Shown here: positions 43,295 through 64,000 of the stretch, in pieces | Numbering within the stretch: the first letter of the stretch is position 1 | Layout of the letters: every line of letters starts with the position of its first letter | Virus record (IMG/VR): IMGVR_UViG_3300006802_000076 | Location: 30,498 to 94,497 of that record | Source: a virus | Direction: 5' to 3' (one strand) | Length of the DNA: 64,000 nucleotides | The notes under the pieces: generated by a model | The model's database searches: none | Told to the model about the DNA's origin: nothing | What the model saw: only the letters and a program-made list of their open reading frames with translations | Position numbers and translations under genes: made by a program

Positions 43295-43470
43295 TACAGA
43301 ATAGGCCTCTCTAGCGCGCATTAAAATTCGGAGGGTATTCAAAGCGTCCCGGGTGGTGTAAATACAAATCTTGTACAAAGTTAGGACATGCGCATTCGTG
43401 GTGAGGCTGGCCTGCTAGGGTTGTCTTTGCCGGTGGGGAGCGGTTCCCCAACCATAAAAAAAGAAAGAAA
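43295..43470 (+). other. Gene-free leader region
   Basis: No credible reading frame is present. Base composition is GC-richer than the flanks. A hairpin (43432-43453, GGTGGGGA with TCCCC-ACC, one bulged A) ends about 17 bases before the next ATG. It is likely the promoter/leader of the following gene, but no clear -10 was identified. Confidence 0.4.
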
Positions 43471-43863: not shown

Positions 43864-43882
43864 AATAATAAAAACACAAAAG

Positions 43883-43917
43883 AAAAAGGGGGTGTGATCT
43901 AATCACACCCCCTTTTT
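43883..43917. terminator. Strong bidirectional terminator
   Basis: A perfect 16-bp stem: AAAAAGGGGGTGTGAT (43883-43898), loop CTA, then its complement ending in TTTTT (43902-43917). A -10 motif follows at once. Confidence 0.9.
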
Positions 43918-43919
43918 CG

Positions 43920-43927
43920 TGTATAAT
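43920..43927 (+). promoter_or_regulatory. -10 promoter, probably leaderless start
   Basis: TGTATAAT with TATAAT at 43922-43927; ATG 43935 follows after 7 bases and has no ribosome site. Confidence 0.55.
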
Positions 43928-43934
43928 AACCCCT

Positions 43935-44753
43935 ATGCTAGAAAAGTCTGAACAAGAAATTGAAATCACATCCGATATGATCAATTCATGGCGTCCAATG
44001 TTTTGTGTGCCTTGTTACGATCAACAAGTTACTGAGCCTTTTATGATGTCAATGCTTCAAACAGCTTTGGCTTTCAAGGACATCGGTATAGATTTTTCAA
44101 TCTCGTCTTCTAGCGATTCCCTTATCACAAGGGGTCGCAATACTCTTGTTGCTAAGTTTCTTGCTAATCCCCAGTTTACGCATATGATGTTTATTGATGC
44201 CGACATTCGATGGGATTACAATGACATCTTGAAGATGTTATGGCATGATAAAGATATCATTACAGGTTCGTATCCTATCAAGAATATCAACTGGGAGATG
44301 GTGCAGCATCTTGTAAAGAATGGTACTCATGTTAATGAGTTACTGCCTAAGTCTCTTCGACATGTTGTGAATCCTGTTGATGGTAAGTCTGGGAATATCA
44401 CGATTGAAAATGGTATCTTTAGAGTCCGTGATGCTGGAACTGGTTTTATGCTTATTAAGCGTGAAGCTTTATTAAAGCTTATTGAGGCTATGCCTGAGTT
44501 GAAGTACAATGATGATACTGGCGCTCTTACTGAAGAGGAGCGCAAGTGGACTTATCATTTCTTTTCTGACTATGTTTACAATGAAAGGTTGCTGTCTGAA
44601 GACTATGGTTTCTGCCGTTACTGGCAGGAAATCGGTGGGGATATTTGGGTTGATCCTGCCATTGAGCTTATGCATATCGGTCGAATGCGATTCACTGGGT
44701 CTTTGATTGATTATATTGGAAACTTTGCTAAAAACCCAATTGAATCAGAATAA
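43935..44753 (+). CDS. Glycosyltransferase, GT2-like
   Basis: A 272-residue GT-A-type protein. SRSR-like SLITRGRNTLVAKFL is followed by MMFIDADIRW, whose DAD is the metal/nucleotide-sugar DxD motif. GTGFMLIKREAL and a downstream SEDYGFCRYW segment fit the family. Read from a leaderless-type promoter, isolated from the other glycosyltransferase by the terminase genes. The acceptor may be DNA, a virion protein or host glycan; none is shown. Confidence 0.8.
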   Translation: MLEKSEQEIEITSDMINSWRPMFCVPCYDQQVTEPFMMSMLQTALAFKDIGIDFSISSSSDSLITRGRNTLVAKFLANPQFTHMMFIDADIRWDYNDILKMLWHDKDIITGSYPIKNINWEMVQHLVKNGTHVNELLPKSLRHVVNPVDGKSGNITIENGIFRVRDAGTGFMLIKREALLKLIEAMPELKYNDDTGALTEEERKWTYHFFSDYVYNERLLSEDYGFCRYWQEIGGDIWVDPAIELMHIGRMRFTGSLIDYIGNFAKNPIESE

Positions 44754-44989
44754 TCTATCAGAAGAGAATCACGCACTAAACTGTGTGATTATACGGGCCG
44801 TAATGTGGCTGTAGTTCAATATAAAAGTTCAGGATGTTTTCCGAGAAAACTTTGTCGGGTTTTGCTTTGCTGTTTGGGGATAAGTTTGCGATTAGGCATA
44901 TACTAAATTTTCTGCAATGTTTATCCAAACCGAGTCCCGCAAAAAGTTTATTCAAAGTCTTTGATGCTGATTGATTGATTGATCTGGCT

Positions 44990-45040
44990 GGCATTCGAAC
45001 ATGACAATGGCGCTGTTTGCGGTTGTCATGTTCGAATGCC
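44990..45040. repeat. Perfect 18-bp inverted repeat
   Basis: GGCATTCGAACATGACAA (44990-45007) and its exact complement (45023-45040) flank a 15-base loop. Each arm contains TTCGAA. Confidence 0.9.
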
Positions 45041-45075
45041 TTTGCCGTTCTCAGGCCGGGTTTCCAGGCGCAAGC

Positions 45076-45123
45076 GCAGCGGGTTAGGCAGCGGGTTAGG
45101 CAGCGGGTTAGGCAGCGGGTTAG
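45076..45123 (+). repeat. Four tandem 12-bp iterons
   Basis: GCAGCGGGTTAG is repeated four times without variation (45076, 45088, 45100, 45112). Confidence 0.95.
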
Positions 45124-45181
45124 GCAAGAATATAGAAAAGTTTGTTGTCTTCCTTGCTTTGTCCAGTCAGCGGATATTAGG

Positions 45182-45209
45182 ATGGGAGGCGAAGCCTCCC
45201 ATTTTCTTT
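45182..45209 (+). terminator. Terminator closing the non-coding block
   Basis: ATGGGAGGC (45182-45190) pairs with GCCTCCCAT (45194-45202) over a GAA loop, followed by TTTCTTT. Confidence 0.8.
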
Positions 45210-45259
45210 GATTTCGCAGCGCAAATACCAAATCACTTCCCAACCGAAAGGCAACGGCA

Positions 45260-45631
45260 ATGTATTTCGTTTCCGACAAGCAAATCCAAAAGATCAAAGA
45301 TACGATTATTGGTGTCAATATCGTTCTTGGTGACATGGATTTTGGCAATGTTGTTGACATCGAGTCTGAGATTGTAGATAGCAATACTTCGCTATTTGCT
45401 ATTACTGATACTGGTCATTGTTTCAATGCTTTCGAGGTTTACCAACTTTATCGTAGCGTTTATGACAAAGTCGCTGACAAAGTGTATCCCGAAGGCTCTG
45501 CCTATTCGCATTGGAATGTCGGTCCAAAGTCTGGTGGCTGGAATGGTGGTGGTGCTATCAATGCTGCTAACATTCCTACTAATGCTCGTATCGGTAATGA
45601 GACTGTCAACATTTCTCGTAAGCCTGGATGA
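45260..45631 (+). CDS. Hypothetical protein, first of small-gene region
   Basis: A 123-residue protein with a helical N-terminus, a beta-rich middle (SLFAITDTGHCFNAFEVYQLY) and a Gly/Asn-rich end. Codon use is C-rich as in the abundant proteins. No family recognised. Confidence 0.7.
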   Translation: MYFVSDKQIQKIKDTIIGVNIVLGDMDFGNVVDIESEIVDSNTSLFAITDTGHCFNAFEVYQLYRSVYDKVADKVYPEGSAYSHWNVGPKSGGWNGGGAINAANIPTNARIGNETVNISRKPG

Positions 45632-63429: not shown

Positions 63430-63685
63430 CAAATTTGCCGGGGTGAGATAAATAACTATCATATATATATCTACCCAGAGAAAGAAACAACAAACAGCAA
63501 ACCAACACACCAGATAAACCAGAAACAACCCCCGAAAAAAGAAAAACCAGATAAACAATCCTAACAAAAAGAAAAAAAGATCCTAACAAAACCCCTAAAA
63601 GATGTTGCGATCATTCAATAAACATGCAAGTAATCGTATGTTTATGCACAATTACGTGGGTTTTTTCCTGGTTTTCGTGGATTTT

Positions 63686-63746
63686 ATGCATAATTACTGT
63701 ATATTTATGCATATTTATGCATTGCGATGCATAATTACTGTATAAT
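63686..63746 (+). promoter_or_regulatory. Duplicated promoter/operator motif
   Basis: ATGCATAATTACTGTATA occurs at 63686-63703 and 63727-63744, 41 bases apart. The second copy runs into TATAAT (63741-63746). TTTATGCA repeats lie between. Confidence 0.6.
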
Positions 63747-63813
63747 CCTATGAAAAGACTAGGAAATATTCCAAGGGTGGGGTGGGTGTCTACTACTATC
63801 TCCTATGTATCCC

Positions 63814-63921
63814 CTATATAGGAAATAAGACATCTCACCCCGCCTTTTGGATTATCTGGGTTCTTTCAGCTGGTTATGTGTGTCTCCTCTATATAGGAAA
63901 TACAACACCTTATCCCGCCTT
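63814..63921 (+). repeat. 33-base imperfect direct repeats, probable operators
   Basis: CTATATAGGAAATA at 63814-63827 and 63889-63902 is each followed by C-rich CCCGCCTT (63838-63846 and 63914-63921). The first copy has the palindrome CCTATATAGG. Spacing is 75 bases. Confidence 0.7.
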
Positions 63922-64000
63922 GTTTCTCCAGAATAAATGTTGACTACTTTGGTCGTCTTTTAGGCCCTGTAAATTCGGGGCCTAAAAAAATTTGTCTATA

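What the first reader, a model, noticed from the sequence alone, without database searches (positions are those of the whole stretch)
44754..45259. Stem-loop and iteron block, candidate novel ncRNA or origin
A 506-base gap holds several stems in order, two nested stems (44851-44943), a perfect 18-bp hairpin, four exact 12-bp iterons, a (TGAT)4 run and a terminator. Such ordered folding with a terminator suggests a transcribed structured RNA; the iterons also suit a replication origin. Large phage RNAs such as GOLLD and ROOL occur in similar accessory regions.
Basis: partly seen in the sequence, partly recalled or inferred. Interest (0 to 1): 0.8.

Follow-up and report, generated by a model that had tools for sequence, protein, structure and literature searches.

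The report
Conserved 12-bp-repeat control region in phages
The gap is a real, non-coding control stretch found at the same place in dozens of related uncultured phages; it keeps a 12-base repeat rhythm and one fixed 13-base signal while the rest of its sequence changes, so it looks like a DNA switch or replication start site rather than a new structured RNA.

Summary
A 506-b gap (44754-45259) holds the longest perfect hairpin in the window, four exact 12-bp repeats, (TGAT)4 and a terminator. The 'nested stems' fold no better than chance.

The gap is orthologous across a phage clade, distantly related to Stanwilliamsviridae, of which 31 distinct gaps were compared. Three linear features recur:
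(1) a 13-mer, ATATACT[AC]AA[AT]TT, in nearly every gap;
(2) decayed tandem repeats with a 12-bp period, with unit sequences that differ between clades. Excess identity at lag 12 is +0.074 in the gap against +0.008 in other intergenic DNA of the same loci, and +0.072 in held-out loci;
(3) a sigma70-like promoter before the next gene.

Hairpins recur at changing sequences and positions. The conserved left part shows no RNA covariation, Rfam finds nothing, and the terminator is not conserved. Best reading: a cis-acting DNA control region with an iteron array, next to a promoter for the downstream operon. A replication origin is the main rival and cannot be decided from sequence. A structured GOLLD/ROOL-like RNA is not supported, although the gap may well be transcribed.

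The parts
44754..45259 (.). Conserved non-coding intergenic control region (whole element)
   Evidence: Between the stop of 43935-44753 and the ATG of 45260-45631; orthologous gap of 353-529 nt in about 30 distinct related loci.
44767..44790 (+). 9-bp stem-loop overlapping a decayed first copy of the 13-mer (ACGCACTAAACTG, 44771-44783)
   Evidence: z -4.7; position equivalent to the first ATATACT box in L007 and other two-box relatives.
44898..44910 (+). ATATACTAAATTT: intact copy of the clade-wide conserved 13-mer with a -10-like TATACT
   Evidence: Only exact match in the window, 7 matches at <=2 mismatches vs 21 expected; found at this place in all distinct first-set loci, several columns invariant; held-out 8 of 9, the ninth a near match with one extra A.
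44968..44983 (+). (TGAT)4 run
   Evidence: Sequence; not conserved in relatives.
44990..45040 (.). Perfect 18-bp hairpin; L007/L008 carry an unrelated 16-bp hairpin at the equivalent place
45076..45126 (.). Iteron array, GCAGCGGGTTAG x4.25
   Evidence: TRF score 102; 12-bp period conserved across the clade with different unit sequences.
45154..45183 (+). Weak sigma70-like promoter TTGCTT-N18-TAGGAT; equivalent to TTGACA-N17-TAGGCT / TTGACA-N17-TAAACT in relatives
   Evidence: Alignment by position across 23 loci, best-scoring hexamer pair taken; in the window alone not above chance and not listed by the consensus scan.
45179..45205 (+). Intrinsic-terminator-like hairpin overlapping the -10
   Evidence: not conserved outside this small clade.
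45260..45631 (+). Downstream gene, 123 aa, conserved next to the gap; helix plus small beta-barrel predicted, function unknown
   Evidence: Homologues in nearly all distinct loci; no Pfam/PHROG family; AlphaFold2 pLDDT 68.8; no significant PDB fold match.

Best explanation
The gap is a cis-acting DNA control region at the start of the operon that begins with the 123-aa gene. Shown: single conserved location, 13-mer, 12-bp periodic repeats, recurring hairpins, promoter-like sites by position. Inferred: the 13-mer is a -10-type promoter at the left end, and a sigma70-like promoter fires near the right end. A phage DNA-binding protein assembles along the 12-bp repeats, which lie upstream of the right-hand promoter and in its leader, and so switches the downstream operon. 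Spacing is kept while unit sequence drifts, as expected if repeats and a multimeric binder co-evolve. In this phage the 18-bp hairpin and terminator probably insulate the region from read-through of the upstream operon.
For: Orthologous position, between the phrog_1574 gene and the 123-aa gene. Lag-12 excess identity +0.074, t about 12.6, top among lags 4-40, with 24 and 36 as harmonics and without the codon lags 6, 9, 15; +0.008 in 77 other intergenic pieces; held-out loci +0.072, prediction written down beforehand. Periodicity is strongest in the leader (+0.129) and present before the promoter (+0.059). All four bases and all 16 dinucleotides contribute, so this is true repeat ancestry, not a strand-specific RNA signal such as a rut site. 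The 13-mer has one exact site in the window and sits at this place in the relatives. 39 of 41 loci have a bare TATAAT/TATACT 6-7 nt before the start codon of the upstream gene, so -10-only promoters look normal in these phages. The left module has no conserved pairing.
Against: No binding protein is identified; the 123-aa protein has no recognisable DNA-binding fold. The right-hand promoter in the window is weak and sigma70-like matches nearby are at chance level. Unique boxes and iterons are equally typical of origins. No expression data exist. Loci are related, so t-values overstate independence.
Confidence: 0.5

Rival explanations
1. Replication origin: an initiator binds the 12-bp iterons, melts nearby AT-rich DNA around the 13-mer, and transcription from TATACT primes or activates replication.
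For: Conserved site, iterons with fixed spacing and drifting sequence, inverted repeats, AT-rich left half, no ORF. Known origins of extrachromosomal mycobacteriophage prophages are non-coding stretches of about 400-670 bp, some transcribed, with 41-71% identity between phages (PMC7157519); the PLE satellite origin lies in a repeat-bearing non-coding region (PMC7145576).
Against: No skew change at the gap (weak test). No initiator gene found next to it. The replication genes (DnaB, primase, Pol III alpha) lie 10-20 kb away. Another repeat-rich non-coding stretch at 63430-64000 is also a candidate.
Confidence: 0.28
2. Structured functional ncRNA transcribed from the TATACT box to the terminator at 45205.
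For: Promoter-like box, strong hairpins, terminator. Highly transcribed intergenic RNAs are known in actinobacteriophages (WC1, D29; PMC10986025).
Against: No Rfam match, no covariation in the conserved left module, terminator not conserved, hairpins change position and sequence freely.
Confidence: 0.09
3. Packaging (pac/cos) or partition (parC/tubC-like) site: a small adaptor protein wraps DNA on 12-bp repeats.
For: TerL ends 1.6 kb upstream and a weak TerS-like HTH protein precedes it. parC/tubC centromeres are direct-repeat arrays next to autoregulated promoters (PMC5016525).
Against: Contig ends in the gap are scattered, not at one base. No ParA or ParB in five large contigs; the ParM search was uninformative because its control failed. 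TubZ not searched.
Confidence: 0.08
4. Neutral relic: the 12-bp repeats are slippage products without function.
For: Unit sequences unrelated between clades; arrays vary in length and place.
Against: Other intergenic DNA of the same phages lacks the period, and 12 dominates in nearly every clade.
Confidence: 0.05

Closest known systems
Iteron-type replication origins (plasmid and phage, e.g. PLE RepA_N origin, P1 RepA)
   Same: Direct repeats with fixed period in an AT-rich non-coding region with inverted repeats
   Different: Initiator not found next to it; unit only 12 bp; no replication evidence
parC / tubC centromeres of type II and III partition systems
   Same: Short tandem direct repeats around or next to the promoter of a small-protein gene
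   Different: No partition NTPase found (ParA/ParB absent, ParM untested in effect, TubZ not searched); the downstream protein model does not look like ParR or TubR
Non-coding transcribed regions of actinobacteriophages (WC1 nc_1-3, D29, RedRock/Alma ori RNA)
   Same: A few hundred nt, intergenic, little sequence conservation, no ORF
   Different: Transcription unknown here; 12-bp periodicity was not encountered in the passages of those papers that I read
GOLLD / ROOL / HEARO large phage RNAs
   Same: Intergenic, in a tailed phage genome
   Different: No covariance-model match; no conserved secondary structure found in the part that aligns

Membership tests
GOLLD / ROOL / HEARO RNAs | Match to the Rfam covariance model | tested here: not met
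   No hit at gathering threshold over the whole window other than tRNAs; none of these at E<=10 in the gap.
Structured ncRNA in general | Compensatory base changes in relatives | tested here: not met
   RNAalifold on ten aligned relatives of the conserved left module: 0 pairs. The variable hairpin zone could not be aligned, so it was not tested as covariation.
Iteron-type replication origin | Direct repeats of constant period | tested here: met
Iteron-type replication origin | Cognate initiator gene | tested here: inconclusive
   Window proteins sampled against PHROGs show DnaB, primase, SSB, Pol III alpha but no RepA/DnaA-like gene; not every ORF was scanned.
Iteron-type replication origin | Replication starts at the site | not testable with these tools
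   Needs marker frequency; skew shows no switch but nearly all nearby genes are co-oriented.
Type II/III partition centromere (parC/tubC) | Tandem repeats upstream of a small DNA-binding protein gene | tested here: inconclusive
   Repeats and small gene present; DNA binding of the 123-aa protein unknown.
Type II/III partition centromere (parC/tubC) | Partner NTPase ParM or TubZ | tested here: inconclusive
   PF06406 found nothing, but nothing rang in the controls either; TubZ not searched. ParA and ParB absent.
Phage pac/cos site | Genome ends or cuts at a defined base | tested here: inconclusive
   Contig ends enriched in the gap but scattered over it, which looks like assembly breakage.

The most novel reading that the evidence does not exclude
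A previously undescribed clade-wide phage element, perhaps an origin or centromere-like site, in which only the 12-bp repeat spacing and one 13-bp box are under selection while the repeat sequence turns over completely between relatives.
Probability: 0.3. Interest if true: 0.65.

Novelty: new variant of a known kind. Interest (0 to 1): 0.45.

Why it matters
If the repeats are an iteron array, this clade offers about 30 natural variants in which spacing is constant and sequence is free, a direct way to study how repeat arrays and their binding proteins co-evolve. It would also give a first candidate control or origin site for a large group of uncultured, mainly aquatic phages. It warns that a visually striking fold in one genome can be a DNA control region instead of an RNA.

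Tried and rejected
Large ncRNA (Rfam, RNAalifold, terminator conservation): rejected. GCGGG/CCCGC long-range pairing in the left module: present in some clades, but reading A3/A4 shows it broken in L031 and L038. Rho utilisation sites (12-nt spaced YC): rejected because all bases and dinucleotides share the period and some arrays, the window's included, are G-rich on the sense strand. Hidden ORFs in the gap: rejected. The 13-mer as a general phage promoter: rejected, one exact site in the window; with one mismatch allowed, matches in the related contigs are no more frequent than the reversed control pattern. Ruegeria phage match: only the repeat unit, inside an annotated hypothetical gene; not pursued. 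Contig ends as physical genome ends: scattered. Two Streptomyces relatives: no 13-mer and no 12-bp period in the intergenic DNA downstream of terminase. DNA searches for the iteron pair and the hairpin arm in IMG/VR: no match. The host could not be identified; the only genome hit is a MAG contig labelled Flavobacteriales, probably stray phage DNA.

Full report
WHAT IS THERE. The window is bases 30498-94497 of a 94,497-b IMG/VR phage record. The gap 44754-45259 lies between an 819-b gene of PHROG 1574 (unknown function, weakly glycosyltransferase-like) and a 123-aa gene. It contains a 9-bp stem (44767-44790), the box ATATACTAAATTT (44898-44910), (TGAT)4, a perfect 18-bp hairpin (44990-45040), four 12-bp repeats (45076-45126), a weak promoter (45154-45183) and a terminator-like hairpin (45179-45205). 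The hairpin is the only perfect inverted repeat of at least 18 bp in the window. The claimed nested stems are not better than shuffles.

WHO ELSE HAS IT. Terminase relatives gave 80 IMG/VR loci and a second query from another clade gave further ones. The closest cultured relatives of terminase and Pol III alpha are Streptomyces phages of the Stanwilliamsviridae type at about 40% amino-acid identity. Downstream of the PHROG 1574 gene there is a non-coding gap of 353-529 nt in the loci that reach far enough, and the next gene is homologous to the window's 123-aa gene in nearly all distinct loci. The gap is therefore orthologous, although its sequence outside the left end hardly aligns beyond close relatives.

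CONSERVED FEATURE 1, THE 13-MER. The distinct first-set loci all carry a form of ATATACT[AC]AA[AT]TT shortly after the upstream stop; several columns are invariant in 27 sequences. Some clades have a second copy about 80-90 nt further on; in the window the first copy is decayed and the second intact. A looser GTTC-like box follows about 30 nt after the first. In the window no other exact match exists and near matches are fewer than chance, so it is a single-site signal and not a general promoter. It contains a -10-like TATACT. That -10-only promoters are used here is suggested by the upstream gene: in 39 of 41 loci an intrinsic terminator is followed at once by TATAAT or TATACT and 6-7 nt later by the start codon, which is a leaderless arrangement.

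CONSERVED FEATURE 2, THE 12-BP PERIOD. Comparing each gap with itself shifted, identity at lag 12 exceeds expectation by 0.074 on average over 23 loci (t about 12.6), with harmonics at 24 and 36 and no signal at the codon lags 6, 9 and 15. Seventy-seven other intergenic pieces from the same loci give 0.008, and intergenic DNA of two Streptomyces relatives gives none. Repeat units differ between clades: GCAGCGGGTTAG in the window, GCAGGCGATTAG/GCTTTGGGGTAG in L007, GCTATATTGCGC-like units in one phase over 315 nt in L031. Before fetching new loci I wrote down the prediction; nine non-redundant new gaps gave +0.072 with lag 12 again on top, and the 13-mer in eight, with a near match in the ninth. 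All bases and dinucleotides contribute, so the period reflects real tandem-repeat ancestry. It is strongest in the leader of the downstream gene and also present before the promoter. Related loci are not independent, so the t-values should be read as ranking, not as exact probabilities.

CONSERVED FEATURE 3, PROMOTER AND HAIRPINS. A sigma70-like promoter such as TTGACA-N17-TAGGCT lies 50-170 nt before the downstream ATG in the loci examined; these were picked as best-scoring pairs, and the window's own copy is weak. Perfect stems of at least 11 bp occur in 35% of gaps against 0.3% of shuffles, but at varying places; in several clades they come from repeated palindromes TCTAACGTTAGA. In the window's own small clade the hairpin sequence is completely different between relatives (window, 18 bp; L007, 16 bp), while hairpin and position are kept.

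WHAT IT IS NOT. There is no Rfam family, no conserved pairing in the alignable left module, no conserved terminator and no ORF. The 'large structured RNA' reading is therefore not supported, while transcription of the gap remains likely. Intergenic RNAs of unknown function are strongly expressed in other actinobacteriophages (PMC10986025).

MECHANISM. I commit to a cis-acting DNA control region: a phage protein assembling on the 12-bp repeats controls the promoter(s) of the downstream operon (0.5). The main rival is a replication origin (0.28), which shares most sequence hallmarks; known transcribed non-coding prophage origins in mycobacteriophages have similar size and similarly low conservation (PMC7157519). 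Partition or packaging is possible but lacks partners or defined ends. The 123-aa neighbour was modelled as a helix plus small beta-barrel of modest confidence with no significant structural match; CdnL/CarD N-terminal domains appear among the insignificant hits, a lead only.

LIMITS. Everything is from sequence. Not all ORFs of the phage were scanned, the host is unknown, and the variable hairpin zone could not be aligned for covariation.

Noticed in passing
window 43882-43935; same place upstream of the PHROG 1574 gene in 39 of 41 loci: Intrinsic terminator followed directly by TATAAT/TATACT and, 6-7 nt later, the start codon: a conserved terminator-abutting, -35-less leaderless promoter.
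   Followed up: partly
window 43317-43360: A look-alike of the conserved module (GCATTAAAATT ... GGGTGGTG) lies after the terminase gene; L007 has CATACTAAACTGG in the equivalent gap.
   Followed up: partly
window 63430-64000: 570-b non-coding AT-rich stretch with about three copies of TTTATGCATAATTACTGTATA and two CTATATAGGAAATA repeats near the contig end; an alternative origin candidate.
   Followed up: no
L041, L042, L044, L061 and relatives, middle of the gap: Two to four copies of the palindrome TCTAACGTTAGA or variants, possibly an operator for a dimeric regulator in these clades.
   Followed up: no
IMG/VR contigs L006, L010, L012, L017, L023, L048, L058, L067, L071 and others: Contig ends look several-fold enriched inside the gap but at different bases, suggesting assembly breakage at a hypervariable region.
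   Followed up: partly
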